From Zarea fungicola (lineage: Eukaryota; Ascomycota; Sordariomycetes; Hypocreales; Cordycipitaceae): DNA of 64,000 nt. A program made the position numbers and the translations under genes. Under the pieces are notes generated by a model. That model did no database searches, had not been told where the DNA came from, and saw nothing but the letters and a program-made list of their open reading frames with translations. The stretch's first letter is position 1, and every line of letters begins with the position of its first letter. The DNA is taken from contig FWCC01000066.1 of assembly GCA_900169235.1 (NCBI GenBank), positions 62,001-126,000 on the forward strand, read 5' to 3'. Of this stretch, positions 18,501 through 44,850 are shown piece by piece.

Positions 18501-20625
18501 GTTTCAAATCTTTCGCTGCGTCCTGACGTCTTTGGACCAGTACATGTTGGGAGACATGCTGGCGCGGCTTTCTAATACGATTGCTGATGAGGACCCCGAG
18601 ATCCAGTCCTTCTCCATGGAGATCTTGACAACCCTGAAAACCCTCATTGTCAAGCTAGAGTCTGACAAGCTGCTTACCTTTCCCCAGCTCTTTTGGACAA
18701 CATGTGCCTGTCTGGAATCCATCAATGAGCGAGAGTTCAAAGAAGCGGTTGATATGCTGAGTGAGCTAGTCGCCAAGATTGACCTGCGCTCTCCCAACGT
18801 CCGTCGCCTTATTGCAGACGGGCAGCCGCCTCGCTGGGATGGTCCGTTTGATGGCCTGCAGCCTCTGCTTCACAAGGGCCTCCGTTCGTCACTCTGCTGG
18901 CAGTCAACGCTGGCCATTATGGAGCAGCTCGTGATGCTGCCGACCGACCCGCTCATTGGAGACGACCAACGCCTCTTCTTTACGCTCCTGGCCAACTTCC
19001 CGCGCTTCCTCCACGAGCTGGACCAGCGCGCCCTTCCTGTGGATGATGTCTTGCAGACGGCGCAAATCTTGCTGGCCGAAGCAGACAGACAGGGCCTCGA
19101 GGGCATCGTACTTGTCATGGACGACTTTATCAATGGACACCTCCACAGTAGCGGCGACCTCTTGACGGTGATGTTTGGCGCTCTCAAGGAGTACTACCTT
19201 CCGCAGCTCGACTTCAAGATGATGACCTTTTTGCTAAGCTTGCTGACAAACTCGATTACGTGGGTCAAGGTGCACACGATGCGCATCCTGTGTGTCGCCA
19301 TTCCAGAAGTCGACATGCGCAACCCTGAGCTGGCTGGCCATGGTTCCGACCTCATCTCGCCACTGCTCCGCCTGCTGCAGACTGACTTGTGCATGAATGC
19401 GCTGGAAGTGCTGGATAACATCATGACGGTTTCAGGCAGCCACATGGACAAGCAGCACCTGCGGATGAGCATGACGCGGGCCACTTCCAAGGGCATTCGC
19501 AAAGAGTACGAGCGCACGCAGAGTCTCTTTGGCATCCCCGAAGCCTCAGGCTGGGCGATTCCCGTGCCGGCCAAGAAGACGGAGGCGACGCGCGCCAACA
19601 TTCACGCCGCGTTTTACATGTGCCAGAGCGCCGAGGGGTCGTCGACCGAAGCCACCCCGTCGGCCGGCGTGGAATTCCACAATGACGACAACGACCTGGC
19701 GTATGGATACTTTGAGGCGCCCGAGCGGACGGCGACAATGCTCTCCGACGATGGACGCGGTGCGGCCGCTGATGCGCTGGCCGGGGACCTGGTCACCAAG
19801 CTTGACAGCCTGGATGACTTTTTCGACGAGCCGTCGAGCCCGCCGACGGACGATGACGGGCACTCTTCGCGCACGGTGACGGAATATGACGATCCAGAGC
19901 CGTCGTTTGGCGGCTCGGACACGCAGCAGCTGTACGACGAGCAGATCCTGCCCATTCTGCACCAGGCGTCCAACAGCCACAACGCGTCCTTCCAGAACGG
20001 GTTTGCGGATAGTCGCCCCCCTCCGCTGCCGGTGGCCATGTCAAGGGAGTCGAGCACGAACGCGATGAACCCTGGCGCGTTTAGCATGGGGATGACTTCG
20101 CCGCATGGGCAGCCGCGTCCGGGTCTGCACCTGCGCTCGATTACGTCGCCGTCGGCGCCCGCCTCGTACTACCCGCACCAGAACCACCACTTCTACAACA
20201 ACAACAACAACAACAACGCCATGATGGCGGGTGCGGGTGACGTGACGTCGGATGAGGAATATTTTTCCGGTGGCGGGTTCTCTGACGCAGAGGATGAGCG
20301 GGGGCCGCCGGGTGCGACAGCGTCGAATATCGGGAGCGTCTTCTTCCTTGAGAACATGGTGACGCAACAGCCGTCGAAGCCACCCTCTGACGGACTGCCC
20401 GCTCTACCCCTGGTTTCCAATGGTGGCGGTGGCGGTGGAGGTGGTAGCAATGGAAATGGTGCCAGCGGTCCCAAGGGTCATCTCCGGCGACTGACGAGTC
20501 GTTCCCGAGACGCTGGTGGTGGTGGTGGTGGGCGTGACAGGACGCCGCCGCTGCCGACGCCGTCCAAGATGCCGGGGACGAACGCGGGCATGATGTTTCC
20601 TGGAGGCCAGCAGGACGTTTTATAG
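12528..20625 (+). CDS. tao3: Cell morphogenesis scaffold Tao3/PAG1/Mor2 (Furry family)
   Basis: Exon 1 is ATGG at 12528-12531, then a 274-bp intron (donor GTGAGT, branch TTGCTAACTC, acceptor CTGCAG), then one exon 12806-20625. The protein is 2,607 aa and begins MAPSQPPPDPAQEQLPPPKP. The reading frame also runs upstream to an ATG at 12679, but that segment lies within the intron and lacks conservation-like character. The body is a long HEAT/Armadillo-like repeat protein (for example ILCRVLVEVICQSNLASITP), with MOR2-PAG1 N-terminal, middle and C-terminal regions as in yeast Tao3 and fly Furry. These proteins bind NDR kinase-Mob complexes (Cbk1/COT-1) in the RAM/MOR network and control polarised growth and septation. 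The C-terminal 350 residues are disordered, with an Asn run (codons near 20196-20217) and Gly runs. Length fits the family. Confidence 0.93.
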
Positions 20626-22125: not shown

Positions 22126-23108
22126 ATGTTTTGTTTAAGTAATCCATCTGCCCGGCGGGAGTTTATAAGGCTAGCTACGCGTCAGGTCCAGCGCAGCAAA
22201 AGATGGAAATCAGAGACCAACCCGACACAGGGGGAACAACACCTAGGACAGCAACAACAGCAGCAGCAACANNNNNNNNNNNNNNNNNNNNNNNNNNNNN
22301 NNNNNNNNNNNNNNNNNNNNNNNNNNNNNNNNNNNNNNNNNNNCAGCAGCAACAACAGCAGCAGCACCAACAGCAACAGCAGCAACAACAGCAACAGCAG
22401 CAACAACAGCAACAGCAGCAACAGCAGCAACAACAGCAACAGCAGCAACAACTCATATACCCGGCACCCACGACGACGCAGCACACGGATCTTGCCTCTT
22501 TTCACGCCTACGCAAAGCGTACCGGCCTCGACGCCAAATCCACCGTCTACGTCGGCACGCACTATGAGTACCTCGTCGCCGCCCACCTCACCCGGTACGG
22601 ATTCCACCTCCGACGCATTGGTGGCGCGCGCGATCGCGGGACCGACCTGATCGGGACATGGACGATACCTGCTGCGTCATCGTCCTCTACTTCTTCCTCG
22701 TCACTGCCCCCGCAGCCGCACCCACTCAAAGTTCTTGTCCAGTGTAAGGCTGGTGTCGGCCAACGTGTCGCGCCCCAGCACATTCGTGAGCTCGAGGGTG
22801 CATTTGCAGGGGCGCCGCCCGGATGGCGAACGACAGCCGCCCCATCAGGCCAGGGGAGTGGTGTAGTGGCCGTCATGGTTTGCGAGAGGCCGGCGACAAA
22901 GGGCGTGCGCGAAGCGCTGTCGCACAGCCAATGGCCGATGATGTTTGTGCTTTGTCAAAGCGGCGGCGCCGTGAGGCAAATGCTGTGGAACAAAAAGGCA
23001 GAGGAACAGCTGGGGCTGCAAGGGCTGGGGGTTGGGATGAGGCATGTTGGGGACGAAACGGAGCTGGTACTGATGCGCAAGGGTAAGATGCTGCCGTTTG
23101 TGGAATAG
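22126..23108 (+). CDS. rrg7: Rrg7-like mitochondrial PD-(D/E)XK protein (DUF2034) with a gapped polyQ tract
   Basis: The C-terminal domain after the polyglutamine tract reads VYVGTHYEYLVAAHLTRYGF, RRIGGARDRGTDLIGTW, KVLVQCKAGVGQRVAPQHI. This is a restriction-endonuclease-like core (Glu of YEYL, Asp of GTDLIG, Gln-x-Lys of VQCK). It matches the yeast Rrg7 family (required for respiratory growth, mitochondrial, DUF2034), whose biochemical role is not established. The ATG at 22126 gives a basic, Ser-rich, acid-poor N-terminus (RREFIRLATRQVQRSKRWKS), plausible as a mitochondrial presequence, leading into Q residues before the N run. The upstream Q frame and the downstream Q frame are offset by one base across the N run, so the exact CDS cannot be written. 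The ATG at 22203 is in the downstream frame but reads TTAAAT rather than Q before the gap. Confidence 0.72.
22272..22343. other. Assembly gap or masked run (72 N) inside CAG/CAA repeat
   Basis: 72 consecutive N flanked on both sides by interrupted CAG/CAA triplets that continue to about 22450. The true repeat length is unknown. Reading-frame comparison says the real length should be 1 modulo 3, not 72. Confidence 0.95.
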
Positions 23109-25189: not shown

Positions 25190-25866
25190 CGTGGCGGGCA
25201 GCAGAATGATGCAGCTTTTCCAACCTGTACGCCGTGTGGCTCGAAAGAGAAGCGCTACGCACTCAAAGCCCGAGGTCAGGCGAAAGCAGGGCGCACAAGG
25301 TAAACAATAACGTCACTGGGGTAGTGCGGCCATTATCGCCGGCTCGTCCCGCCAACGCATAATTCGCCGTCTCACAACTACGGCTTTCACATAACGAATC
25401 CGTTACTTTCTGCGACATCGCCGATCCTACCTATAGCCGATTTCATTTCAGCGGAAATCGTCTGCGTTGCCAGCTAGCCACAGCTGAAAAGATGCGCTGA
25501 AATGTCTCACATCATTATGGACTGGCGAGTGAAACCGCGCAAGGATGGGTGTTTTATGACGTGGAGCACATGAGTGCTGCCAGAGCTGGAGCTTGGGCTG
25601 CTCTCCAGGCTGGTCTACGATTTCTCTTGAGTAACGCAGCACGAGTAGGCTGAACGTGAGTCCACCACTGATTGGCTACCAAGTTCTTTTCTCGTATGCC
25701 TGTTGTTCAATATTTCAATTCCCAACTCCAATACTATTTTCTCAAGCGAGGGCCAGCATCTGTCTTTGCTCAGATGATAGCAACTAAAACCGAGCAACCG
25801 CGAGGGCCTAACTAGCAGAACTCGGCCGCCTATACACCAGTTTCGCGCAGACAAAAAGTCGTACAG
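25190..25866. other. Divergent intergenic region
   Basis: 677 bp between the secreted unknown protein and the arylsulfotransferase-like gene; two promoters are expected. No repeat or ORF of note. Confidence 0.5.
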
Positions 25867-27737
25867 ATGACCTCCAAAATCCTTTCCATCACAATTGCAG
25901 CAATCTATGCTTTATTTCTTGCCGATACATCTACCGCTGATGTGCCATTATTTACTGATATCGGCAGGTATACTGCGCTCGTCAACGCTTTCAATGGCCT
26001 TCCCATGCAGACCTTCCGCTCCTCCGACATTATCGCCCCTGTTTTCATGGTCAACTCGTGGGACAAGAAAAATGTCGACACCGCATCGCACATGTTTCTG
26101 GGTAGAATGTACGGTCCGGGGAAATCTGGGCCGATGATCTTCGATACCCGAGATCTGAGCCTTGTCTACGCAGATGAGCAGTATTACAAGTCAATGCACT
26201 CGGATGTCAGAGTTATCAACGGCACGAGCTACCTGACTGCATGGGTGATGGGAGAGAAAAACGCCATGTACTGTCTTGTATATGACGAGACGTACAGAAT
26301 AAAGTATAATGTCTCAGCGCAGGGTATGGAGGGCGACATGCATGAGCTACAAGTTACGCCACAAGGCACGGCCATCTTATCAACCTATTCCTCCAGGCCG
26401 TTTGATTGTTCTCCAGTTGGTGGACCAAAGTCCTGCGCCTTGCGTGACAGTGGCTTTCAAGAGATTGACCTGAACAGCAACGCTGTGATTTTTAATTGGT
26501 CAGCATCAGCTCACTTCGAGATCTGGGAGTCATACGCAAAGTTCAATAATACCTATGACAGATACAGCGGCTTGGGTTACGACTTTTTCCACATCAACTC
26601 AGTTGAAAAGGTCAGTTACATCAACTTCGCTCCAGCGACAGCTCAGGCCGTATTCTGACTCTTCATTTTAGACTGTGAATGGAAACTACCTGGTGTCAAG
26701 CCGGAACCTTTGTCTCCTGGTACTCATTAGTGGTAGGGATGGCAGCATTATCTGGCGCCTTGGCGGCCGGGATAACGAATTTTCTGATCTGAGCAATGGC
26801 ACTGCCTTTAACTTCTGCTGGCAGCATGACGCACGGCTACACCACAACGAGAGCCAAATCACACTCTTCGATAACCATATCAATGAAACTGCTTACTGCA
26901 GGGGCAAATGCCATACGCGTGGCCTAGTACTTGAGATAGATTCAGATAAACTGACGGCCCGATGTGTCCGCGAATACTTCCACCCCGAGAGTATTAACTC
27001 TGAAGCCATGGGCAGCCTGCAAGTTCTCGAGACCGGAAATGTGTTGCTTGCATTTGGGTTCAACCCTGCAATCGTGGAATACACTATTGACGGAACGCCC
27101 GTCATGTCCATTCAGCTGGGAAATATTGGTGTTGGCGCTCAAGGAAACAACGGAGTTTACCGTGCTAGCAAATACAACTGGACAGGCAAGCCGACATGGC
27201 CACCGAGTGTCGCACTCGATACCCCCGAAAATGGAATGATGAATACCACTATATATTTGTCGTGGAATGGTGCGACAGATGTTGCTTCATGGTCTGTTGT
27301 AAGTGCTATCCCGCCGCTCGTTGCCTTGCGCTGACCTCCAGTTCGCTTCAAACGACTCTTCAACTATTTGGAGAGAAGGAAGCGTGATTGCACAGCATGA
27401 GCGATCGGGATTTGAAACGAAAATCTGTTTTGACAACGAAAACAGCTTCAATTATATTGGCGCTGCTGCTCTGTCTGCCCGTGGCACTACCCTTGGCCGT
27501 ACAGCCGTTATCGACATGAAACTCGGTGATTCCTCCAACCTCTACGATGCAAGATACAATTCTTTTGTCTATACCTTGGCTGGTAATTTAAAGCTATGTA
27601 GAATTTGTTTTGGCGCGGGTTTACTGGCAATGTTCTTTCTGTTATTTGCGTGCATCCGGGCACGCTATGAGAGGCAAAGAGTAGATGCACTGATCCTCAA
27701 TGAGAGAGCCGTCTCACATTCACTACCGGCAAAATAA
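25867..27737 (+). CDS. Arylsulfotransferase-family (ASST-like) secreted or membrane protein
   Basis: Three exons: 25867-26610, 26672-27298 and 27342-27737, giving 588 aa. Donors are GTCAGT and GTAAGT, acceptors TTTTAG and CTCCAG. It has an N-terminal signal peptide (SITIAAIYALFLADTSTADV), a beta-propeller-like body with the fungal Arylsulfotran_2 signature (SGRDGSIIWRLGGRDNEFSD, WQHDARLHHNESQITLFDNH, GSLQVLETGNVLLAFGFNP), many N-glycosylation sequons, and a C-terminal membrane helix (LCRICFGAGLLAMFFLLFAC) with a short basic tail. Bacterial ASST moves sulfate between phenols without PAPS. The catalytic activity of the fungal branch is not established, so substrate is unknown. It would sit in the secretory pathway or cell surface, body outside. 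It converges with the NRPS-like gene, 115 bp apart. Confidence 0.85.
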
Positions 27738-27852: not shown

Positions 27853-30693
27853 CTACAGAGCACACGCCTCCAATCGCGATTGGAGGATTGCTGCAACTGC
27901 GGGTGCATTCTGCGGACTCAGCAGGGTATAGTGGCTGCCGTCCAACTGATGAAACTTCAAATTTTGAGTGAAATCAGCCCAATGCGACAGCTTCGTTTGC
28001 AGCCACTGGTCCCTGGTCTGGGCAACCTCCTCGATCGGGTGTCCGTAGAGCACCTCAATCATCTGGACACTTCCACTGGGCTCATAGGCCTGCGCTATTT
28101 TGTGAGAATTACACGCCAAATCTACCCATGTTTGCAGTCGACGTTTATCCAGCCCTAGGGTTTCAAGTCGCTGCGCGGAAGCAAAGGTCAAGAGCATCTC
28201 CACTAACCGCGTCTTTTCCACCTCACCACCGTCCCTGAAGCCGTGTGCCGACTTCTGCGTCTCAGTTATGTATGAAATTTCCTGTTCGGGACTCTGAAAG
28301 ACATCCAGGAAGCGGGAAATCATGATGAGTGTTTTGCCCCAGGATGCCTGTAGCATGCGGTTTCTGATGTGTGGAGGCTGGTCAATAATCACCAAAACCG
28401 GTGTCTCATGCCCGTCATGTTGCAGCAGCTTGGCAATCTCAAAAGCAACTGTTCCGCCATACGAGTATCCGGCAATGGCATACGGGCCATCTGGCTGCAC
28501 TTTCTGTATCGCCTTTTTATAGCAGCCAATCATTTCGTCAAGGCTTGTGAAGGGCGTTTCGCCGTCGAACCCGCGCGCTCGGAGAGCATACACCGGACGG
28601 TCAACAAAATACTTGGCTAGATGAATAAATATGAGTACTTCTCCCACTCCAGGATGAACGAGCCAGAGAGGAGTCTTTGTTCCTACGCTGCGGAGAGTTA
28701 CAACTGGGTCGTAGATGGCGTCGTCCGTAGATCTCGGAGACTCCAGGACAGCTGCGAGTCTGTGTATAGTAGAGAAGTTGATAATTGTAGCTATTGAGAT
28801 GTTTTTGTGTAATTTTTGTTGCAGCTTCCACCTCAGCTGGGTCAGTTCCAGAGACGAGATACCAAGCATGAACAAGTCTTCGTGGACTCCAATGTCCTGT
28901 TGGCTACTGTCGAAAATCGCAGTGGCAATTCCATGCACAAGCTTTTCCATGGCAGTCAATGATGAAGAAGTACAACGCTCACGGGCATTGGCAAGCAACT
29001 CATTGTCTCGTTGTATTTCTGCGTCGTATGCGCCCGCTTCGAAGGCTGCTCTGATTCTGGCTCGAGACAGTTTTCCAAGAGTTGATTTGAGCAACAGAGT
29101 TTCTGTAAGTGGCAAGACTCTATGCGGCCGTACATAGTAGGTGCTCATAATGGTAGCACAAATCGATTTGAAGGCGTTTAAGCGCATCGTCGCATCGCTA
29201 GGGTCAAAGCTAGGCAAGTAGACCACGCATAAAGTCTCGGAAGCGGCACCTGCAACTCGATATGGAAAGACAGCAGTGTATGACGGAGCCACGGCTCCGA
29301 TATTCGTACTTTCAATTGCCTGTTCAATCGCATGTGGATAGTGCTTGACGCCATTGATGTTGATAGCTTCCGTAGTGCGGCCTACCAAGTGCAGGCTTCC
29401 CCGTTGATCTACGAAGGCCAAGTCTCCGGTGACGAACCAGCCGTCTGATGTGAACGCTCTGGCGGTTTCCTCGGGACTGTTGAAATACCCACCAAAGACA
29501 TTGGTGCCGCGAATCTCCAAGCGACCAGTTTCATGGGCCTTGCATACGCGCCCGTCCCCAACTGCAGTGACGCGCCTGTCCACGCCGAAGATGGCGTAGC
29601 CCACGGAGGCAAATTCCCGACCGCCTTCAAGATCACTGTCTGGGCACCCTTTGCTGTAGATGCTCCCTGCGCAGGTTTCTGTCATTCCGAACCCGGGTCG
29701 GAGGAAGCCAGCAGGCGCACCGAGCGCGCCAAAGGCACGGACAACTGCTGAGCAAAGACCAGTTGGGATGGCTTCGCCGCCAGTGATCAAACAGCGCATA
29801 GAGGATAGACCTTGCAGACCCTCACGGGCACCGATGGACGTAGACTTCAAAATTGGCTCCAGGGCCGCCTTTACGCTGGCGAGAAATGAACTCGGCGCAA
29901 AGGCGTACGCGACTGAGTGACGCTGGAGCAGACGGAGAAAAACGAGCGGGTCGGCCATCAAATCGTGAGCCTGTGCGTGGACCTGATCTGAGCCAAGGGC
30001 AAGCGCTTGCAGGTGTATCTCGGTGAGATTCGCAACATGGTCCATGCCGACCCAATTGAAGAAGACGTCGTTACTATCCATGCAATGATATGTCGACTTG
30101 CTCCTCAGCGAGGCGATGATTTGATCATGTCGCAGGATGACTGCTTTCGCATACCCCGTGCTACCAGAGGTGAGCATGAGCACAGCTATGTCAGCTGAAA
30201 TAGCGTTCACATCTTGGCGGCTGAGGCTCGCAGTGATGCTGGTGGTCATGTTTGGACTTTTGTTCGCCACGATGTCTTCAATGGTGTAAATCTTCCAGCC
30301 CGGTAGATCAAGAAACTCAGGGACAAGACTCTGCGTGGTGATGACAATTGGTTTCTGCAGCAGGCTCTGTAAGTGCTGAATGTGCTTCCGTCGCTGATCG
30401 AGATCCCTGCTGAACGGCGTCGAAATCGCGGGTACCTGGTCTGCTGCAATAACAGCCCACAGCCATTGGACATGGTCCATGTGATTGTCTAGGTGAAGGA
30501 GTACAACGCCCCGCGATGCTGTTGAAAGCTGTCTCACCAAGTGACTTAATCTGAAGGCATAGCTTGCAAGTTGTGCATAAGTTATTTTCGTCGGAAGTGC
30601 TATTTCGCCTGGTGCGTATATGAACAGACCCTTGTCGGGCGACAAGCGTGCTGTCCTTTCTAGCGTTTCCAGTAAATGGTTTGGCATGCGCAT
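27853..30693 (-). CDS. Single-module NRPS-like enzyme, adenylation-thiolation-thioesterase
   Basis: One intronless frame of 946 aa. The adenylation domain (about 1-555) has A3 LTSGSTGYAKAV (174-185), the GFGMTET loop (334-340), a DGWFVTGDLAF-type motif (417-427) and A10 with Lys541 in STLGKLSRAR. The thiolation domain (about 575-650) has the carrier Ser614 in LGISSLE, a variant of LGGxSL. The thioesterase (about 670-940) has GYSYGG (Ser744) and a late His in GSHYTLLS. There is no condensation domain. This is the layout of fungal synthetases that activate aryl-2-keto acids and dimerise them to quinones, furanones or aspulvinones (TdiA, AtrA, MelA and relatives). The substrate cannot be read from the sequence alone. 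Flanking sulfotransferase-type genes on both sides suggest a tailored phenolic product; that is inference. Confidence 0.92.
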   Translation of the reverse strand: MRMPNHLLETLERTARLSPDKGLFIYAPGEIALPTKITYAQLASYAFRLSHLVRQLSTASRGVVLLHLDNHMDHVQWLWAVIAADQVPAISTPFSRDLDQRRKHIQHLQSLLQKPIVITTQSLVPEFLDLPGWKIYTIEDIVANKSPNMTTSITASLSRQDVNAISADIAVLMLTSGSTGYAKAVILRHDQIIASLRSKSTYHCMDSNDVFFNWVGMDHVANLTEIHLQALALGSDQVHAQAHDLMADPLVFLRLLQRHSVAYAFAPSSFLASVKAALEPILKSTSIGAREGLQGLSSMRCLITGGEAIPTGLCSAVVRAFGALGAPAGFLRPGFGMTETCAGSIYSKGCPDSDLEGGREFASVGYAIFGVDRRVTAVGDGRVCKAHETGRLEIRGTNVFGGYFNSPEETARAFTSDGWFVTGDLAFVDQRGSLHLVGRTTEAININGVKHYPHAIEQAIESTNIGAVAPSYTAVFPYRVAGAASETLCVVYLPSFDPSDATMRLNAFKSICATIMSTYYVRPHRVLPLTETLLLKSTLGKLSRARIRAAFEAGAYDAEIQRDNELLANARERCTSSSLTAMEKLVHGIATAIFDSSQQDIGVHEDLFMLGISSLELTQLRWKLQQKLHKNISIATIINFSTIHRLAAVLESPRSTDDAIYDPVVTLRSVGTKTPLWLVHPGVGEVLIFIHLAKYFVDRPVYALRARGFDGETPFTSLDEMIGCYKKAIQKVQPDGPYAIAGYSYGGTVAFEIAKLLQHDGHETPVLVIIDQPPHIRNRMLQASWGKTLIMISRFLDVFQSPEQEISYITETQKSAHGFRDGGEVEKTRLVEMLLTFASAQRLETLGLDKRRLQTWVDLACNSHKIAQAYEPSGSVQMIEVLYGHPIEEVAQTRDQWLQTKLSHWADFTQNLKFHQLDGSHYTLLSPQNAPAVAAILQSRLEACAL

Positions 30694-31114
30694 GACGAGT
30701 AGATGGACTAGAAAGCCTAACCCAATCTTTGCAAATTTTTAATTCTTGAGGGAGGGAGTTTTAAATAGGTGCTGCCGGTTTATTATGCCAAGCCTCACTT
30801 TATATACCTACAATTCTTGCAGAGGATGTTTTGTCTTAGCCACAGTTACGTGGCGCCCTGGTGCTCTTTCTCTGTTCTGGCTGTATGAATGCACATCACT
30901 TGCGGCCCATTTCCTGGTTCCTGAGACAGGAAACAGTTAGTGTAACTGGTTCTTTTGTACTGCCTTTGCTTGCTTATAACTAAGTTGACTATCAGTTGAG
31001 CGATGCCTTCCAGAGGTAACTTGCTGAATGCCACTAAGACATATCATCTACGTGGTTTCCCTGGTCGCACAAGAAGCATGCTGGGTAGTACCATTGTATT
31101 ATCCTAACTAACCA
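30694..31114. other. Promoter region of the NRPS-like gene
   Basis: 421 bp between two minus-strand genes. A TATA-like element lies at 30759-30767; the rest shows no structure. Confidence 0.5.
30759..30767 (-). promoter_or_regulatory. TATA-like box of the NRPS-like gene
   Basis: TATTTAAAA on the minus strand, 66 bp before the ATG. Position and sequence fit a core promoter; not proven. Confidence 0.45.
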
Positions 31115-31996
31115 CTAAATTGATCCTCGCAAGAACATTCTGGCTGTTAAGTAACTCCCATAACCTACGGATACCATGGTGCACACTCTCCCAACTAGGA
31201 TCATGGCATTTTCATTAGCCCGAGTAATTGATTTTGCTAGTCTGCGATTTCTTTTCGCCAGGTACCCAGCTCGCTCGTTGATGTGTGGAAATGGTTCTGG
31301 AAAGATTTCACCGGTGTTTTGATCCTTTTTAGTTGGAATTGGCACGCCAAGGTGCTCGCAAATTGGACCCCAGCCGTCTTTGATGGTATACTCGATATAT
31401 CGATGGGCGGGGATTTTCTCACGGAATTCTGTGTAACGCTCCTTGAACCAGGCTATGGCCTTATTCTTCTCTCTCCGATGACTGAAAGGCATAGAGAGCG
31501 CCGCCATGACTTGAACAAACAAGAGCCAGTTTCTCATCTGAGGGTCGAAAAGGCGTATGTAGAGCTGGGCAAGCTTGTGGCGGAGACCGGTAGGCTCCAT
31601 GGTCTCGGCTACACTACTGAGTACACTTTCATACCAGCTCTCTGGATCGCGGTTGAGAATGATGACCTTTGCCTCGGGATAGAGCTCAGCCAGCTCGCAG
31701 CTGAAAACAGCCGTAGGCATATCACAACACGCCTGTGAGAAGCCCAAGAGCTTATCCCAATCTTGCCTTGTGAATTGACCTTTGTTTGCGTACTTGGCTT
31801 CAAAAGCGCGAATCCACTGCGCCGGATGATCCTCAATGTGCTCGGAGACGGCCATCATATGATAACAGTCATTGAAGCCAAGCCGTCTAAGAGCGGATCT
31901 CATACTTAGCGTACCCGTTCGATGAAGGCCACAAACAATGACCCGCATAGGGACGGCGCGGGCATCATGGCCAATGCCTTGAGTGTCGGGCATCAT
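31115..31996 (-). CDS. PAPS-dependent-type sulfotransferase family protein (Sulfotransfer_4)
   Basis: From the MM at 31996 the frame encodes 293 aa; the frame stays open to an ATG at 32128 (337 aa), but the extra segment looks non-coding. The 5'-phosphosulfate-binding loop is GLHRTGTLSM (residues 23-32), and the 3'-phosphate-binding segment is VIILNRDPESWYESVLSS. The middle (YHMMAVSEHIEDHPAQWIRA, DMPTAVFSCELAELYPEAKV) is typical of the fungal and animal family often misnamed NAD-epimerase. A C-terminal hydrophobic segment (AMILVGRVCTMVSVGYGSYL) could be a membrane tail. The family is assumed to transfer sulfate from PAPS; the substrate is unknown. It lies between the NRPS-like gene and UstYa, in the same orientation as both, so either pathway could use it. 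Confidence 0.82.
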   Translation of the reverse strand: MMPDTQGIGHDARAVPMRVIVCGLHRTGTLSMRSALRRLGFNDCYHMMAVSEHIEDHPAQWIRAFEAKYANKGQFTRQDWDKLLGFSQACCDMPTAVFSCELAELYPEAKVIILNRDPESWYESVLSSVAETMEPTGLRHKLAQLYIRLFDPQMRNWLLFVQVMAALSMPFSHRREKNKAIAWFKERYTEFREKIPAHRYIEYTIKDGWGPICEHLGVPIPTKKDQNTGEIFPEPFPHINERAGYLAKRNRRLAKSITRANENAMILVGRVCTMVSVGYGSYLTARMFLRGSI

Positions 31997-33366
31997 GTGT
32001 AGCAAATATGCCAAGCCAGTCTTGCGAGGCACGAAAATAATGGCCGTAGATACCGTCGAAATATCTCGGGAATTATGTGCGTGGGCGCTGAAGATGATGC
32101 AGGACGACAGCATTGGTGTGATGGGCATAGGTCAGTAGTACGGTGCCGCACAACGGGTTACTGCCCAGCCGTGAGGAGGCATGTCTAAAACATGCATAAA
32201 ATCATTACGCATACTACTGGATTCATAGTTATACCCAGATAAAAAAGAATGCTTTTCTGGGGGCTTGGCAAAAGCTGCCTCGGCAATGTCATTACTAGAT
32301 TAGAAAGGGTATGGTCCTGGCACTACTGGTATAACTGCAAGAAGTAATTATGTAGTCTCTGAATTAACGCTCTGTATTGTGTTTAAAATTTGCCAGTTGG
32401 CGTAGCGGAACAGGGAATCGTTACAAAGACGGGTATTGTCGATCCGAGACCCGACGTGTCTCAGACAAGGCAATTTGAGTGACTTGATCATTTTATTTGT
32501 CCACGATGATACTGGGCGGTGTACGGAATATCGCTCGGCTGAGACAGTCTCGAGCCAACGCATTTCAGCTCTGTCTTGTTATACTTTGTCGGAGGCGGAT
32601 ACGGGGGCAGCCCGGCCCGGCCCGGCCCTGGTACTGATCCGCCCAGCAACTCTCGTGGGTGGCACTACGTAGTGCGATGATGCAGCACCATGGGTCAATA
32701 ATGGCTTATATGGAAGCGCTAAGTCGGTCAGACTTTCCCTCAGCCCCTCCGACCCAATAAGAGCAACTATACGGAGTAACTTTCGCTCTTTTGGCTTTGA
32801 CGCGCATGGCTGTGGCTGGCTGTGCACATACTGGCAAGAGTTGCCGCTCTCGTTAAATGATGGCTCCGGCCCCCGCTGGTGAGATGCTTCCGGTCTCGGC
32901 TGGATACGAGACAGATACGGGGATCGTCATCTGAGATGCAGCACCAACACTAATTTTGGTGGCGTACTGTACGGCCGGGGAAAGCAACGCAACTACCATC
33001 AGCCGAAGCCACAGGCGCCAATGACAAGAAAAGAAAAGAGTTATTTCGCATAAAAGTTTGAGAATTTATGCATTCCTCCCTGCTTGGCACGCGCTCGGCG
33101 TTTCAACTTCTTGTCTTGTGGATTGACGTAGTCACTCTTTCACACCGCACTTTGCGCTGCAGAGTTCTAAATCAGGGACTCCAGCTAGGGATATTGTGGA
33201 CAAATACGAGGGAAGCAAAGCGCGAGCGAGAGCAGAGAACTACAGACGGCCTGGTTCAAGGTAAGTTATCACAATTTCCAGGCCCGGGCGGAAATCGGTG
33301 TACGTTTGCAGCATCTTTGGGTTCTTTCGCCAAAATTGCTTCTACCTGATGTGCATACAGTGCTCT
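31997..33366. other. Intergenic region between the sulfotransferase and UstYa
   Basis: About 1.4 kb without a supportable gene. Contains a short GGCCC-type repeat (three copies of CCCGG, near 32611-32626) and TACGGAGTA at 32770-32778. The ORFs present have no recognisable content. Confidence 0.5.
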
Positions 33367-34370
33367 CTAATCTACAATAATTTCACCATATTTGTCATTC
33401 TCAATCTGGTTCGTTTGTACCCAAGCATTGATTGCATCCATATCGCGGCACTGCACGTCTACATCCCAGCGAACAAAAGCTGATTTTGCACGCTCCTCCG
33501 TGTTCATATGTAGATAATCCTCGGCATAGCGACGAGTTCCAGAATCATCCACGTACGTGAAATTCTGTCTCCACCAATATACTAGCGAGGTATCACCATG
33601 ACAAAGCAGGCTTTGTCGAACAACATCGAGGCAGTGTCCTTTAGGCCTTGTTAGACACGGTCGTTGGGATGGGAAGTGTAACGTACCAACGTGATGTAAC
33701 ACCATTTCGCGAGCCTCATCCGGATAGTAGTGGTCAATGTGGAACGCTTTCCGGAGCCTGTTCAGGCAGTGCATTTGATGGTAAACACCCAGCCCATATG
33801 CGCCGTATCCCAAGTCCTTAAACATCTCAACACTCTCTGGCAGTCCCAGGGTTTCGGCATCTTCCAGAGAGATCTTGATCATACGATCATTTTCTTTTTT
33901 CAGGAATCACGGTTGTTAGCCGGTCGTATTGGGACGCTGCCTCAATAGTGAACTGCTCACCTCGAAGCCAACCCTCCCAGGCGTTGTCTACTTCATCTGA
34001 TGGAGGTGACTGAAAAAGCTTGCTCGGTTCATATTTTGTGTTGATGAAACGTTCTGCACCTCCAGCACGAACAGGTGCTTATGACATCATTAGCTTTTGC
34101 TCCACATGGAGCTGTCAAAGACTTACAATATGCTGCCGTAGAGACGCTGGCATAATGCTTCGCGTTATATAGTAGCGATGTTCCGAGGGCAACGCCGAGT
34201 ATGAGGCTGCAAAATGGCCAAAACTTGAACTGGAAACTGCCATTCTGATTGCCAGCAAGATGGCGATGAGGATGCTCAAACTCGGATGTCAGCGGCTCTG
34301 ACTCTTCTTTACTTTGAGCAACGTCCTGCTCTGTGACTGAGTGACTGAATGGATGAAACGACTTCATCAT
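33367..34370 (-). CDS. UstYa-family (DUF3328) oxidase of RiPP/mycotoxin biosynthesis
   Basis: Four exons: 34370-34127, 34077-33961, 33893-33687 and 33638-33367, 279 aa; all donors (GTAAGT, GTGAGC, GTACGT) and branch points (GCTAAT, GGCTAAC, TCTAAC) are good. The N-terminal cytosolic part is acidic. One membrane helix follows (about 49-68, KFWPFCSLILGVALGTSLLY), then a lumenal domain with SPPSDEVDNAWEGW, the first HxxHC (158-162, YHQMHCLNRLRKAF) and the second HxxHC (187-191, HVGHCLDVVRQSLLCHGDTS). These paired motifs define the UstYa family, whose members crosslink or hydroxylate Tyr/Phe-containing core peptides (ustiloxin, phomopsin, asperipin) and also occur in other mycotoxin clusters. Its divergent neighbour is a repeat-peptide precursor, which strongly supports a RiPP role. 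An in-frame ATG at 34400 would add 10 residues. The last intron is 48 nt and in frame, so retention would not break the protein. Confidence 0.93.
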
Positions 34371-35144
34371 GTTTGCAAAAGAGTGGCAATTAACTTGCAA
34401 CGCCCGATTTGTTGTTTTGAGAAGCTGGTTGGAAGGGAGAAGCGAAAACGCTTGGGGTTTGGAACGACGCTACGTCCAGCCTAGTCGTCACCCGCGAGCT
34501 GCGGATAAACTGAACTTGCATAAATACCAATCGAATGCCGAGACCGGGGGCACCTGTCTTAATTTGAGCAAAGCGACAGCTAACAAAACATGCAGATGGC
34601 TCAGCTTGCCTCTGAAGGACAAAGATCGGCAGAATAAGCAATTGCGGGTTCACATCTTGCCGCTGTGATCGACTAGACTGCGGAATATCGCCGACCTTAC
34701 CCGCTCCTCGCCAATTCACATGGCTCGCAAGAGAAACATCTTTGCCAATATTGAGACCATCTTCGTCTACCATCTTTTGAACACGAGGTTGTCAGCCTTT
34801 TGACCAGGCTTCTTATGGGGCCGGTCATGGTCCTGCCCATCAGTCGTGCTGCTGTGCGCCGCCGCTGAACGGCGGGATTGATGATGAATATGACACGATG
34901 CATGTCTCATTCAAACATAAAGCTCCCTCATACACTGTAATTTTGAAGAAGAACTGAATTAAGTATGATACGCTGCACCTCCGGGCTATCGGATGATGAG
35001 TGGAGTAATGATCATGCGACGGATTACATGAAGTGCGCAGTAGTACATATAAAGACTAGAGCTTCATCCATCTCCTTCAAATTGGTCACTACTTACAAAC
35101 TATATCGTTCAACGTACTACATCTAACCAAACTCTACCTTCACA
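34371..35144. promoter_or_regulatory. Bidirectional promoter region between UstYa and the repeat-peptide precursor
   Basis: 774 bp separate the two divergent start codons. On the precursor side there is ATATAAAG at 35047-35054. On the UstYa side GGTATTTATG (minus strand, near 34520-34529) is a weaker TATA candidate about 150 bp from the ATG. Shared control of enzyme and precursor is likely but not shown. Confidence 0.55.
35047..35054 (+). promoter_or_regulatory. TATA box of the repeat-peptide precursor
   Basis: ATATAAAG, 90 bp ahead of the ATG, followed by a C/A/T-rich leader, the usual form of a strongly expressed fungal secreted-peptide gene. Confidence 0.6.
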
Positions 35145-35488
35145 ATGCATTTCACCAACAGCGTTTCTGTTCTGCTCTGCACTCTCGTCACTTTTGGAGC
35201 ATCCGCTCCTTATACTCCGGTGAAATACTTTGGCGAGGCTGCGCGCCGCGATGANNNNNNNNNNNNNNNNNNNNNNNNNNNNNNNNNNNNNNNNNNNNNN
35301 NNNNNNNNNNNNNNNNNNNNNNNNNNNNNNNNNNNNNNGTTGACGAAGCTGTTGCCAAGCGTTACACGCCCGTCAAGTACTTCGGCGAGGCTGCGCGCCG
35401 CGACGAGGCTGATGAGTCTACCACTGCCAAGCGCTACACCCCTGTGAAGTACTTCGGTGAGGCGGCTCGTCGCGACGAGACTCAGTAG
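35145..35488 (+). CDS. Secreted Kex2-type repeat-peptide precursor, candidate dikaritin RiPP precursor
   Basis: The ATG at 35145 opens a signal peptide (MHFTNSVSVLLCTLVTFGAS, cleavage near residue 21). The first copy of YTPVKYFGEAARRD follows at once. After an 84-N gap come two more identical copies, each preceded by Lys-Arg, with the linker DEADESTTAKR between them; the stop is TAG at 35486. Copies 2 and 3 are spaced exactly 72 nt. Each core is thus flanked by dibasic sites (KR before, RR after), as for Kex2/KexB processing. The layout (signal peptide, acidic linkers, KR-separated identical cores, Tyr in the core, divergent UstYa) matches dikaritin precursors such as those of ustiloxin, asperipin and epichloecyclin. 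It is not a Trp/Cys-type mating pheromone. The frames on the two sides of the gap are offset by one base, so the gap size is wrong or there is a frame break. The product is not identified. Confidence 0.85.
35211..35485 (+). repeat. Tandem 72-bp coding repeats of the precursor, three visible copies
   Basis: Core copies begin at 35211, 35363 and 35435. The second and third are exactly 72 nt apart; the first to second distance (152, including 84 N) leaves room for about one more unit. All visible differences between copies in the core are synonymous. Confidence 0.85.
35255..35338. other. Assembly gap or masked run (84 N) inside the precursor repeats
   Basis: 84 N directly after the first repeat copy. 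The reading frame requires a true length of 1 modulo 3. The number of hidden repeat copies is therefore unknown. Confidence 0.95.
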
Positions 35489-40456: not shown

Positions 40457-41693
40457 ATGTACATGCTGAGGAAGTTACAGGTTGCAGTGCTTGCAGCAGG
40501 ACTCTGCGGCCACTCTGTTGTCCTTGCGAGCAGGACGCAGATTGAGACACGCTCCATTAATGACATCTACAAGGCCGCGCAAGCTGAAAGCGGAACTCTC
40601 AATGTCTATTTTGGTGGTAGCTGTACGTTTTACCACGAAAAATTATACCTCTGTTAATAGAAATAAAACTGACCCTATCTTACAGCGCAGGCAGCGGCAG
40701 CACCGATGCTGGCAGCGTTTAAGGGTCAATTCCCTGACGTCCCGATAAACATTACTGCAGAGCTGTCGAAATACGCCGATTCGAGAATTGACCGCAGCTA
40801 TATTGATGGAAAGCCATTTATTGACGTGGCCCTCTTGCAGACGGTGCAGGACTTTGCTCGCTGGGACAAAGAGCTGCGACTGCTACACTACAAGCCTGCC
40901 AACTTTGACGACATTAACCTTGCCATTACGGACATTGAGGGCGCTCATTTTCCCGTCGGCTACAGTATGCACACAAAACAACAAGCCTAGACACAGCTTG
41001 GGAGTAATCACTAACATGGAAACAGATCAATTCGGCCCATTTTACTATGATTCCACTTTGGTGCCAGACGCGATGGTCCCAAAGACGTATGCGGATGTCT
41101 TGAATCCCTACTGGAAGGGCAAAATGGTATTGACCTACCCCAACGACGACGACGGTGTGCTATTTATGTTTTCCCTCATCATCCAGCGCTACGGCTTTCA
41201 GTGGCTCGACAGTCTCCTGCAGCAGGACATCATGTGGGTGCGCGGAGCGTCTGCCGCCACGGGTGCCATTATCAGCAACCACAACAACGGCGGCAATGGT
41301 TCGCGCATCCTCACATTCTCTGGCCTGGGCGGGTTCACCCCATCAACTTCGTTCCTCAAAGTGCAGCAGCCCTCGGCCCCAGACCGATTCATGACCTGGG
41401 CGCAGCAGGCGGCCATCTTTGCCAGCACGCCGCGCCCCGAAAGCGCCAAGCTCTTTGCAAACTTCTTGCTGAGTGATATCTGGCAGAAGCCCATTGCAGC
41501 GGGTGGTGCACCGTCGATTCGGACGTCTCTCACTGGTGCTAATAATGTGTTTGCGGCCAACAACACTGAGCCCAGTGGGTACATGGTCTTCATGACGAAC
41601 CGAGAGGAGGTTGAGTGGTGGAGAATGCAGATGGAGACTTATATTGGCCTCGCAGTAGGTCCGGACCCGGCCACTCCTACTGGTAGCGCGTAA
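40457..41693 (+). CDS. Secreted ABC-type solute-binding protein (bacterial Fe3+/family 1 type)
   Basis: Three exons: 40457-40622, 40686-40964 and 41026-41693, 370 aa. Introns are 63 and 61 bp with GTACGT and GTATGC donors and ACTGAC and CACTAAC branches. The signal peptide is LRKLQVAVLAAGLCGHSVVL. The mature protein has the periplasmic-binding-protein layout: ESGTLNVYFGGS at the start, DVALLQTVQDFARWDKEL, GPFYYDSTLVPDAMVPKTYA, DVLNPYWKGKMVLTYPNDDD, WVRGASAATGAIISNHNNGG, PESAKLFANFLLSDIWQKP. In bacteria these deliver iron or small anions to an importer; fungi have no such importer, so the role here is unknown (ligand capture or signalling at the surface). Introns and signal peptide show it is adapted to a fungal genome, so any transfer is not recent. 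Confidence 0.85.
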
Positions 41694-41873: not shown

Positions 41874-43376
41874 CTAGGACCAAACTGTGCTTGACCGAAT
41901 ATCACCCCACCACGCATGCATAATGTCGCGCCAGTACAGCCGCCGCGGCAGCCACTGCTTTGCATCCCCGACCTTGGGAACGATGCTCTGGCCCTTTTTC
42001 ACGTACGTCGACTGCAGATAGAAGAACGGCTGCGGCTTCATGGTCTTGCGCTCCTGCTCCGTCTGGCGCGGGCAGATGGACGTGTTGCCGCTGGCCGCCA
42101 CCTCGGCGATGATGCGGCTCGCGAGCTGCGCCGCCGCGTCCGCGCCGAGCGTCCAGCTGGCGTCGACGTAGCCAAACGCGAAGAACAGGTTCGGCACGCC
42201 CTCCAGCATGGAGCCCTTCCAGACGTAGCGGTCCGGCACGTCGACGCGCGCGCCGTCGACGCTCAGCGCCGCCTTGCCGAGCAGCGCCAGCTTCAGGCCC
42301 GTCGCCGTGACGATGATGTCCGGGTTCAGCTCCTCGCCCGACACGAGCTTGATGCTGCGCGCCGTGACGGCCGCAATCTCGCCCGTCGTGACGCTGCCCT
42401 TGCCGCTGCGCAGCGCGCGGAAGAAGTCGGCGTCCGGGCAGAGGCACATGCGCTGGTCCCAGGGGTTGTAGCGCGGGACAAAGTCCGGGTCCAGCGCGGT
42501 GCCCTTGGGGAGCTCGCCCTTTGTGCGGCGCAGGATGGCGCGGCGCGCGAGGCCGGGCAGGTTGCGGCAGAAGAAGATGAGGAGGAAGGCGGAGACGACC
42601 CATTTGAAGCGGATGATGGGGTTGGCGAGGCGGACGGGGAGAAGGGCCTTTGTGATCTTCTCAAAGAGGCCCTCGCCCGGCACGGAGATGATGTAGCTGG
42701 GCGAACGCTGCAGCATGGTGACGTGCGAGACCTTGTCGGCGACGGAGGGAACGAGCGTAATAGCAGTAGCGCCAGAGCCGATAATGACCATGTTCTTGCC
42801 CGTGTAGTCGAGATCCTCGGGCCAGAACTGCGGGTGCACGACGGGGCCTTTGAAGTTGTCGATGCCGGGAATGACGGTTTGCAGTGGCTCATCGTAGTCG
42901 TAGTAGCCCGTGCCCACCATTGTGAAGCGGCCGCGAACGGCTACAGTCTTTTTGCCGTTCTCGCAAGTCAGAGTCCAGAACTTGGCGTTGGTGTCAAAGT
43001 CGAGGCTCTTGACCTTGTGGTTGAACTTGATGTTCTTGTCAATGCCTTGTTCCTGGATCGCCTCACGGAGATATTCTAGGATCAGATCTGCTTGCGCAAT
43101 AGATTTTGAGGACTTCCATGGCTTCCAAGGGAAGCTAAATGTGTAGAGATCAGAATCTGAGCGAAGGCCTGCTGACATGTTAGAATGCGTCGTTACTTTT
43201 CTCGGCCGCGGTGACTCACCAGGATATTTGAATAGACTCCATGTTCCGCCAATCTCACTGCGCGCTTCCAAGATGCAGTATGTGAGGTTTGGGTTGCGCT
43301 CTTTTAGTCGATAGGCGAAATTGATGCCGGAAATGCCGGCGCCAATGATGACGACGTCGTAGTCTTGAACCGCCAT
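41874..43376 (-). CDS. Class B flavin monooxygenase, Baeyer-Villiger type
   Basis: Two exons, 43376-43220 and 43168-41874, joined across a 51-bp in-frame intron (donor GTGAGT, branch TCTAACATG, acceptor CAGCAG) that restores KYPGLRSDSDLYTFSFPW. The mature frame is 483 aa. Visible motifs are an FAD-binding GAGISG, the BVMO fingerprint FKGPVVHPQFWP (FxGxxxHxxxW), an NADPH-binding GSGATA and the late ATGLKL. Such enzymes insert oxygen into ketones or oxidise N/S atoms using NADPH and FAD in the cytosol. It is a plausible tailoring or detoxifying enzyme of this accessory block. Its 3' half (about 42050-42700) is very GC-rich compared with its AT-rich surroundings. If the intron is retained the frame stays open (500 aa), but the conserved motif would be split. 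Confidence 0.88.
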   Translation of the reverse strand: MAVQDYDVVIIGAGISGINFAYRLKERNPNLTYCILEARSEIGGTWSLFKYPGESPRPRKVTTHSNMSAGLRSDSDLYTFSFPWKPWKSSKSIAQADLILEYLREAIQEQGIDKNIKFNHKVKSLDFDTNAKFWTLTCENGKKTVAVRGRFTMVGTGYYDYDEPLQTVIPGIDNFKGPVVHPQFWPEDLDYTGKNMVIIGSGATAITLVPSVADKVSHVTMLQRSPSYIISVPGEGLFEKITKALLPVRLANPIIRFKWVVSAFLLIFFCRNLPGLARRAILRRTKGELPKGTALDPDFVPRYNPWDQRMCLCPDADFFRALRSGKGSVTTGEIAAVTARSIKLVSGEELNPDIIVTATGLKLALLGKAALSVDGARVDVPDRYVWKGSMLEGVPNLFFAFGYVDASWTLGADAAAQLASRIIAEVAASGNTSICPRQTEQERKTMKPQPFFYLQSTYVKKGQSIVPKVGDAKQWLPRRLYWRDIMHAWWGDIRSSTVWS

Positions 43377-44850
43377 TGTCCCAATTGGTCAGCAGCGAGA
43401 AGAAGCCGCTAGCAAGGCTGTAATGATGTGCTTGGCTCCTCAATCAGCAGTACAGTCAGTCAAGGTCAAAAGCTGCGGTTAGAGAGAATAGCAGAGGTTC
43501 CCATTTAAATTATTCAAGGCAGCGATGAATGGAGGAAGATCAGAAAGAAGACCCGAGGTGTACCGCCCCTTTTCTATCATGGCTTGCGGCTCGGCTTGCG
43601 GCTTGCGCAAAACAGGGGATGGACCAATTAGTTCCCCGTCGCGCCGGCCGAGCAGATTGCCAAGCCTCATATCAAAACTTTTCAGCTGGCAACCTGTGAG
43701 TGGGGCGAAAGACGTCAAAAATACTGTTTTTGTACGGAGTAACTGGTACAGACAATTGATATAGGCAGGAAGGAGGTCAACAGTTTAGCTGTTTTGCAGG
43801 TATAGTTCGCCGGCAAGTCAGCAACCAGCCAGCAGGCCAACGGCTAGCTAAACTCAATCTGCCTGGCATTATGGTAAACTCATATCTGACTAACTAATAG
43901 CCGAGAACCTTAAAGCTACCAGATTAACCTCGAGTTAGGCATACTAAACGTTTGGGAAGGCTGTGCTTCTACATGCTGCCTTAAAGGAATCTCTTTGCCA
44001 TACCTACAATTGCTCGTTGGGCAGTTTCAACTTGTTGAGATGTTATTATAATCCTTCAGGCGCCAGGCCCGCCCCCGCACAGCGGATCTGCATGCGGACC
44101 TGGTCAAGCCTCAAAATCCCTCCGGCTCCGGAGGGGGTGCCATGGTGCCTCGGCGCTGCAGACAAGGCTGGCCTTAAGTAGCCACGGTAGCGCGGCTTTC
44201 CAACTGCCGCTCAAGCGTCAACCGAGGCAGCGAAATAATCAGCCATGTTTAAGATAATGGCATCATGTCCGCCCTAGCAGTAGATAACATCTGATCCAGG
44301 CTAGCCGACCGCGGCTTTTCTGCAGTTGAAAGGATTTAAAGTGTCTTTATTTTTGCTCATATAATTAGAATAGAACACGTAGCAGTGAAATAGTTGCTAG
44401 ATAAACTGTGTTATAAAGTTTATAACGGGCTGCTTTAGTGGTATTATTAGCTCCTCGTGTGTACTGTTAGCCAAGGCTGGCATTATTTAGCTGCTTCAAA
44501 ACGATTTAAACATATATTTTATTTCCAGCCAGCTACCGCCTACCTTTTACTCCAAACAATGAAATGCTTTTGTAGTAGTTTACAGGTTACTGACGACAGG
44601 ACCGGTCATTCTCGTCGAACTGCATGTCACTCGCCATGCTTTCAAGTACGCGGTATAATAAAACAATATCAAATTATTGAGAGCAACTAATCCATCTAAT
44701 CATATCACAGAATTGTACATAATCCAGAATCAATATGCACCGTTGCATTAGCCCCATGATATGCCTCAGTTCCCCTGTTCCATTCTCGATCCCTTCCACA
44801 TTAGTCATCTTCCAAAACATAGCGTACAAGCGAGATACTACTTTCTGTAT
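43377..44850. other. AT-rich intergenic region, 1.5 kb
   Basis: No gene is supported. Contains TACGGAGTA at 43733-43741. From about 44330 to 44750 it is strongly AT-rich with many TA steps, as in RIP-mutated or relic DNA, but no transposon similarity can be seen by eye. Confidence 0.45.

What the first reader, a model, noticed from the sequence alone, without database searches (positions are those of the whole stretch)
33367..35488. Candidate new dikaritin-type RiPP locus: UstYa oxidase divergent to a Kex2 repeat precursor
Seen: a four-exon UstYa with both HxxHC motifs (158-162, 187-191) and a membrane anchor, divergent by 774 bp from a secreted precursor with identical Tyr-containing cores separated by Lys-Arg. 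Known: in ustiloxin, phomopsin, asperipin-2a and epichloecyclin pathways, such pairs make crosslinked cyclic peptides. Inferred: this pair makes a peptide from the core YTPVKYFGEAA, which I do not recognise from any described dikaritin.
Basis: partly seen in the sequence, partly recalled or inferred. Interest (0 to 1): 0.92.

Follow-up and report, generated by a model that had tools for sequence, protein, structure and literature searches.

The report
Fungal repeat peptide beside UstYa oxidase
An unnamed fungus carries, back to back, a gene for a secreted protein made of identical short tyrosine-containing peptides and a gene for the kind of oxidase that ties such peptides into rings; it is a credible new example of a well-known arrangement, with a peptide sequence we could not find elsewhere.

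Summary
A four-exon UstYa-family gene (window 34370-33367, minus strand, 279 aa, one hydrophobic anchor, both HxxHC motifs) is divergent by 774 bp from a small secreted-type repeat protein (ATG 35145, stop 35488) with three visible identical copies of YTPVKYFGEAARRD, which differ from each other only at third codon positions. The UstYa is 41-50% identical to 12 aligned homologs from Aspergillus, Arthroderma, Epichloe, Penicillium and others. Two word-based protein searches found no relative of the precursor, and a PMC text search did not find the core. In the same genome 9 of 28 UstYa neighbourhoods read hold a dibasic-repeat precursor (19 do not), and in 8 of these 9 the nearest UstYa match is divergent. 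This is thus one of at least nine such pairs in one fungus: a new member of a known kind (dikaritin-type RiPP). Cross-linking, expression and co-occurrence in other species are not shown. No second UstYa or tyrosinase lies beside it.

The parts
33367..34370 (-). UstYa-family oxidase gene, 4 exons (34370-34127, 34077-33961, 33893-33687, 33638-33367), 279 aa
   Evidence: gene model; Pfam PF11807 on the open frame over exons 3-4 (E 4.3e-20); 12 colinear homologs
33639..33686 (-). Intron 3 (48 nt); its removal creates the second HxxHC motif HVGHC
   Evidence: alignment
34371..35144 (.). 774-bp divergent intergenic region, presumed shared promoter region
   Evidence: length; function inferred
35145..35488 (+). 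Secreted-type Kex2 repeat precursor (KEP); interrupted by an N run; frames either side differ as assembled
35145..35207 (+). Signal-peptide-like N terminus MHFTNSVSVLLCTLVTFGASA
   Evidence: sequence; judged by eye, no signal-peptide predictor run
35211..35252 (+). Visible repeat copy 1, YTPVKYFGEAARRD (follows the signal-like start)
35255..35338 (.). Run of 84 N inside the precursor
35363..35404 (+). Visible repeat copy, after Lys-Arg
35435..35476 (+). Last repeat copy, after Lys-Arg
31115..32131 (-). Neighbour: Sulfotransfer_4 gene, 1.2 kb beyond the UstYa; possible but unproven member
   Evidence: Pfam PF17784 E 1.1e-57; distance

Best explanation
The pair is a dikaritin-type RiPP module. 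The repeat protein enters the secretory pathway, Kex2 cuts after Lys-Arg (and probably after Arg-Arg), exopeptidases trim the basic residues, and the membrane-anchored UstYa enzyme, using its two HxxHC motifs, oxidises the tyrosine-containing core YTPVKYFGEAA, most likely forming one or more side-chain cross-links from Tyr1 and/or Tyr6. Shown: gene structure, motifs, repeats, third-position-only divergence of the copies, and recurrence of the arrangement in this genome. Inferred: processing, cross-linking, co-expression, secretion of the product, and that the precursor is intact across the N run.
For: UstYa open with both HxxHC motifs, Pfam PF11807, 12 colinear homologs. Copies of the repeat differ only at third codon positions. 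774 bp apart, divergent. In the same genome 9 of 28 UstYa neighbourhoods read hold a dibasic-repeat precursor, and the nearest UstYa match is divergent in 8 of 9 (binomial 1e-4 against 1/4; 7 of 8 without the window, 4e-4). One of them (L014) also has a tyrosinase fragment at the contig end, as ustiloxin clusters have a tyrosinase (PMC12048977). The closest exon matches to this UstYa elsewhere in the genome, in L005 and L004, lie beside repeat precursors. Pheromone-type repeat proteins almost never have a UstYa neighbour (PMC7329392).
Against: N run and frame mismatch leave the precursor unproven as a working gene. No relative of the precursor found, so co-occurrence with the UstYa elsewhere is untested. 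No second UstYa in the window and no tyrosinase on the contig; no methyltransferase in the 30 ORFs scanned. 19 of 28 UstYa neighbourhoods showed no repeat precursor in my scan, and UstYa-family enzymes also serve non-RiPP pathways (PMC12048977); an NRPS-like gene lies 2.6 kb beyond the UstYa. Two of the nine repeat units (L006, L011) have no Tyr. The control for neighbourhood enrichment is small (0 of 8 stretches; Fisher p 0.07).
Confidence: 0.75

Rival explanations
1. The repeat protein yields a linear secreted peptide (signal, effector or surface peptide), and the UstYa next to it belongs to another pathway, for example that of the neighbouring NRPS-like gene.
For: UstYa-family enzymes also occur in polyketide and nonribosomal clusters (PMC12048977, passages); an AMP-binding/PP-binding/thioesterase gene lies at 27853-30738; 78% of surveyed repeat precursors have no UstYa neighbour (PMC7329392); 19 of 28 UstYa neighbourhoods read here showed no repeat precursor.
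Against: Immediate divergent adjacency, which recurs with different precursors in this genome; Tyr-containing core.
Confidence: 0.15
2. The locus is a decayed or unexpressed remnant: UstYa is intact but the precursor is broken.
For: Frames on the two sides of the N run do not join as assembled.
Against: Gap lengths in draft assemblies can be estimates (general knowledge); the differences among the visible copies are all at synonymous third positions; UstYa is open with GT..AG introns.
Confidence: 0.08
3. The precursor is a mating pheromone of the alpha-factor type.
For: Signal peptide plus Kex2 repeats is also the plan of alpha-type pheromone precursors (PMC7329392).
Against: No Pfam pheromone match at E <= 1 for the C-terminal piece; 100% of 227 yeast-type and 98.6% of 216 fungal pheromone-type repeat proteins lack a UstYa neighbour (PMC7329392).
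Confidence: 0.02

Closest known systems
Ustiloxin / phomopsin precursor-UstYa systems (dikaritins)
   Same: Secreted repeat precursor with Kex2 sites, UstYa-family enzyme(s) with two HxxHC motifs nearby, core that begins with Tyr
   Different: Core YTPVKYFGEAA is longer than the tetrapeptide YXIX cores (passages of PMC7329392) and has no Ile; one UstYa seen rather than several; no tyrosinase on the contig and no methyltransferase among the ORFs scanned
Asperipin-2a system
   Same: UstYa-family oxidase; core cross-linked through more than one Tyr in asperipin (PMC9233826), and two Tyr in the core here
   Different: Different core; four genes are responsible for asperipin-2a (PMC10512285), two are recognised here; counterparts of the other two were not specifically searched for
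Epichloecyclins (GigA)
   Same: Repeat precursor, probable Kex2 processing, Tyr in the core, UstYa-family enzyme (passages of PMC9233826 and PMC12048977)
   Different: Epichloecyclin cores vary within the precursor and have an N-terminal Ile; here the visible cores are identical and start with Tyr
Victorin
   Same: Multi-core precursor, probably Kex2-processed (PMC9233826); counted among dikaritins (PMC10512285)
   Different: Victorin is cyclised through a C-terminal Phe and chlorinated; here the core ends in Ala, and no halogenation gene was looked for

Membership tests
Dikaritin (broad definition: KEP precursor plus UstYa homolog, PMC10512285) | Precursor with ER signal peptide | tested here: inconclusive
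   Signal-like N terminus seen by eye; no predictor run
Dikaritin (broad definition: KEP precursor plus UstYa homolog, PMC10512285) | Repeated cores separated by Kex2 sites | tested here: met
   Three visible identical copies, Lys-Arg before two of them, Arg-Arg after the core in each; N run leaves the total unknown
Dikaritin (broad definition: KEP precursor plus UstYa homolog, PMC10512285) | UstYa/DUF3328 gene close to the precursor | tested here: met
   PF11807, 774 bp, divergent
Dikaritin (broad definition: KEP precursor plus UstYa homolog, PMC10512285) | Two HxxHC motifs in the UstYa protein | tested here: met
   HQMHC 159-163, HVGHC 188-192
Dikaritin (broad definition: KEP precursor plus UstYa homolog, PMC10512285) | Cross-linked cyclic product from the core | not testable with these tools
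   Needs LC-MS/MS or NMR
Dikaritin (strict five-gene definition attributed to Ding et al. in PMC12048977) | Multiple DUF3328 proteins in the cluster | tested here: not met
   One UstYa match in the window; the next on the contig is 170 kb away (C191:265976)
Dikaritin (strict five-gene definition attributed to Ding et al. in PMC12048977) | Tyrosinase | tested here: not met
   No PF00264 match listed on contig C191
Dikaritin (strict five-gene definition attributed to Ding et al. in PMC12048977) | Methyltransferase; transporter or peptidase | tested here: inconclusive
   None among 30 of the 98 stop-to-stop ORFs of 130 aa or more scanned with Pfam, apart from a Lon protease 14 kb away; genes of short exons could be missed
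Fungal alpha-type pheromone precursor | Pheromone motif in the repeat (Pfam MF_alpha) | tested here: not met
   No such match at E <= 1 for the C-terminal piece

The most novel reading that the evidence does not exclude
The divergent UstYa/precursor pair is a self-contained two-gene module that this fungus has multiplied into a repertoire of at least nine differently sequenced modules, in which a single UstYa plus housekeeping Kex2 and exopeptidases suffice at this locus; here the tyrosine peptide may also be sulfated by the adjacent Sulfotransfer_4 gene, a neighbourhood seen at one other UstYa gene of the genome.
Probability: 0.12. Interest if true: 0.6.

Novelty: new member of a known kind. 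Interest (0 to 1): 0.42.

Why it matters
Only five dikaritins had been reported by December 2022 (PMC10512285, passages), although 1758 repeat precursors with a UstYa neighbour were counted (PMC7329392). A locus with one precursor, one recognised oxidase and, as far as visible, a single repeated core is a simple case in which to ask what a lone UstYa enzyme does, and the nine pairs in one genome give an internal comparison set of cores.

Tried and rejected
Homolog search for the precursor: the C-terminal piece with the N run read as X (24 candidates, none at E <= 10) and the C-terminal piece padded with X to reach longer precursors (276 candidates, none at E <= 10). Both need shared 5-residue words and a length window, so diverged precursors would be missed. 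Text search for the core (0 papers), for six locus tags of UstYa homologs (0 papers) and for six of the other cores (19 papers listed, all matching one term only, DILYNN, and unrelated by title). PDB search with the UstYa alignment: 12 weak matches, best E 0.011, none named as a UstYa-type enzyme. AlphaFold of the subfamily (P0006 with 14 homologs, not the window's own protein) gave mean pLDDT 61; the two motifs fall in two helices (150-172, 184-202; motif positions), but I did not run a fold search on so weak a model. Sigma-70 promoter scan of the intergenic region (nothing; not suited to a fungus). The PDB search with the window's Lon protease, meant as a hint to the taxon, named no organisms and gave none.

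Repeat scan, rows dropped before counting, by my judgement, because they had no signal-like start, were basic-rich low-complexity, or were another frame or strand of a counted repeat: L004 7842-8204 and 2049-2438 (the latter scores as signal-like but overlaps the counted array in another frame); L008 9251-9841 and 6481-6618; L009 6225-6371; L012 9122-9250 and 9073-9639; L014 3488-3790; L023 6618-7097; L029 5219-5407 (the counted frame is 5223-5393); window 19549-20040. L011 was picked up in a wrong frame; the counted frame has Lys-Lys, a weaker Kex2 site (recalled). In L010, L023 and L029 the signal-like start lies upstream in another frame and needs an intron that I did not model. The threshold was chosen by me; the shuffle control (0 hits in 3 rounds) used plain base shuffles and is weak. 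Orientations and distances are between UstYa exon matches and stop-to-stop ORFs, not between start codons, except in the window; in L006 the divergent and the convergent UstYa are almost equally near (948 and 963 bp).

The sulfotransferase link is post hoc: among the matches listed, two PF17784 genes lie within 3 kb of a UstYa match, 0.12 expected with rough gene numbers (36 and 24).

Full report
What is there. Introns, gene content (MOR2-PAG1, mitochondrial-type Lon, NRPS-like, UstYa) and the UstYa relatives, whose named sources are ascomycete fungi (taxonomy recalled), point to a filamentous ascomycete, but I could not name it. On the minus strand a four-exon gene (34370-34127, 34077-33961, 33893-33687, 33638-33367) encodes a 279-residue UstYa-family protein with one hydrophobic stretch (about 48-71) and the motifs HQMHC (159-163) and HVGHC (188-192). 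The second motif appears only when the 48-nt third intron is taken out; read through, the frame stays open but shows PKGHC instead. The homologs settle this: aligned with 12 of the 20 homologs other than the window's own product, the spliced protein is colinear and 41-50% identical, and the first motif is kept in 13 of 13 rows and the second in 12 of 13 (P0012 has a gap there). I left P0008 (477 residues, with a C-terminal extension) and P0015-P0021 out of that alignment. The intron positions of the homologs were not seen.

The precursor. From ATG 35145, 774 bp from the UstYa start, a protein with a signal-like start runs straight into YTPVKYFGEAARRD; after an N run two more copies of these 14 residues stand at 35363 and 35435, each after Lys-Arg, and the protein ends at 35488. 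The three copies differ from each other at 7, 10 and 7 of 42 bases, every one a third codon position, which is strong evidence for a translated, constrained peptide. Between the first and the second visible copy lie 84 N. ATG to stop is 344 nt, so the two sides are not in one frame as assembled; the N run may have an estimated length, or the gene may be damaged. What the N run hides is unknown and I did not infer it.

Is it more than chance? In this genome PF11807 has 55 exon-level matches, which I grouped by hand into the window and 34 further stretches of up to 10 kb. By my scan 9 of the 28 hold a short protein of dibasic-separated repeats: the window; L004 (DILYFMPVGWG-KR and a variant, 3 copies); L005 (DILYNN[PG]AGWG-KR, 7); L006 (EFLNILDKKDEDDKW and a variant, 3, Lys-Lys-Arg); L010 (EPYGAYGNW-KR and variants, 5); L011 (DPHKVDPHNRFW, 6, Lys-Lys); L014 (HKYSVSAK and a variant, 3); L023 (PDYIAYGA-KR and a variant, 10); L029 (SVYKSYMAD...KR, 3). 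19 of 28 hold none that I could see. Two control stretches (L030, L031) and the rest of the window, counted as six tiles, hold none with a signal-like start; the window rest has one dropped row. With so few controls the enrichment itself is only suggestive (Fisher p 0.07). More telling is orientation: in 8 of 9 loci the nearest UstYa exon match is divergent to the precursor, and in L005 the farther of two is; one in four is expected for random orientation (binomial 1e-4; 7 of 8 without the window, 4e-4; 6 of 7 if the near-tie L006 is also set aside, 1.3e-3). Seven of the nine repeat units contain Tyr; those of L006 and L011 do not. The best matches to the window's UstYa elsewhere in the genome are exons in L005 (33% identity) and L004 (43%), both beside repeat precursors; the homologs in other fungi are closer.

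How it most likely works. Dikaritin precursors go to the Golgi, are cut by Kex2 and trimmed, and the cores are cross-linked by UstYa-family enzymes (passages of PMC9233826; PMC10512285; PMC12048977). The same reading fits here: Kex2 at Lys-Arg frees each copy with its acidic spacer, a cut at Arg-Arg and trimming leave YTPVKYFGEAA, and Tyr1 or Tyr6 is joined to another residue. In ustiloxins and phomopsins the N-terminal Tyr is linked to an internal Ile; this core has no Ile, so the partner would have to be another residue. The ring, its position and its size are inference. UstYa enzymes can also desaturate residues (phomopsins, PMC10512285) and have been linked to hydroxylation and chlorination (PMC12048977), so a linear oxidised product is possible too.

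The neighbourhood. Beyond the UstYa lie a Sulfotransfer_4 gene (31118-32131), an NRPS-like gene with AMP-binding, carrier and thioesterase domains (27856-30738) and an arylsulfotransferase-like gene in two pieces (25816-27331); on the other side a SET-like gene (pieces between 36378 and 37542, Pfam matches below the cut-off, E 0.024 and 0.096) and an FMO-like gene (41877-43388). No tyrosinase match lies on this contig and no second UstYa match in the window. Another Sulfotransfer_4 gene lies beside the UstYa at C439:91791-92459 (C439:90661-91379), where my scan saw no repeat precursor (L003). Whether these genes belong to the module is open.

What is known, and what is new. Repeat precursors were surveyed in 1461 fungal genomes: 7878 in all, 1758 (22%) with a DUF3328 neighbour, at a mean distance of 3.09 genes, and 2560 without any homolog (PMC7329392, abstract and passages). 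An orphan core beside a UstYa gene is thus what one expects in a fungus not sampled before. By the broad definition (KEP plus UstYa homolog, PMC10512285) this is a dikaritin-type locus; by the older five-gene definition quoted in PMC12048977 it is not, since a tyrosinase and multiple UstYa proteins are lacking. The core letters were in none of the 5.39 million PMC papers searched; supplements and most subscription papers were not searched, so a listing in a supplementary table cannot be excluded.

Verdict. It is a good candidate, one among at least nine in the same genome, and not a new kind of system.

Noticed in passing
L004, L005, L006, L010, L011, L014, L023, L029 (same genome): Eight further dibasic-repeat precursors beside UstYa genes, with different cores; L004 and L005 share a DILY...GWG-KR plan; L010 and L023 share a Y-x-A-Y-G motif; L006 and L011 have no Tyr in the repeat unit.
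   Followed up: partly
L014 3543-3845 and C157:123776-123859: HKYSVSAK repeat precursor, UstYa and a tyrosinase fragment at a contig end, an ustiloxin-like gene set.
   Followed up: no
C43:24646-25254 and C43:18097-18719: The genome's strongest tyrosinase match lies about 6 kb from a UstYa gene; no repeat precursor was seen in L026, which ends at C43:24999 and so cuts the tyrosinase.
   Followed up: no
window 35255-35338 and 22272-22343: Two N runs in the window; the second lies inside the ORF with an RRG7 domain (22143-23108).
   Followed up: no
window 31115-32131 and C439:90661-91379: Sulfotransfer_4 genes adjacent to UstYa genes at two separate loci.
   Followed up: partly
window 27853-30738: Single-module NRPS-like gene (AMP-binding, carrier, thioesterase), probably a separate metabolite pathway.
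   Followed up: no
P0008: Cladobotryum mycophilum UstYa relative of 477 residues with a long C-terminal extension, a fusion or a merged gene model.
   Followed up: no
window 40749-41693: ORF with a weak match (E 1.3e-6) to a bacterial solute-binding domain (PF13343).
   Followed up: no
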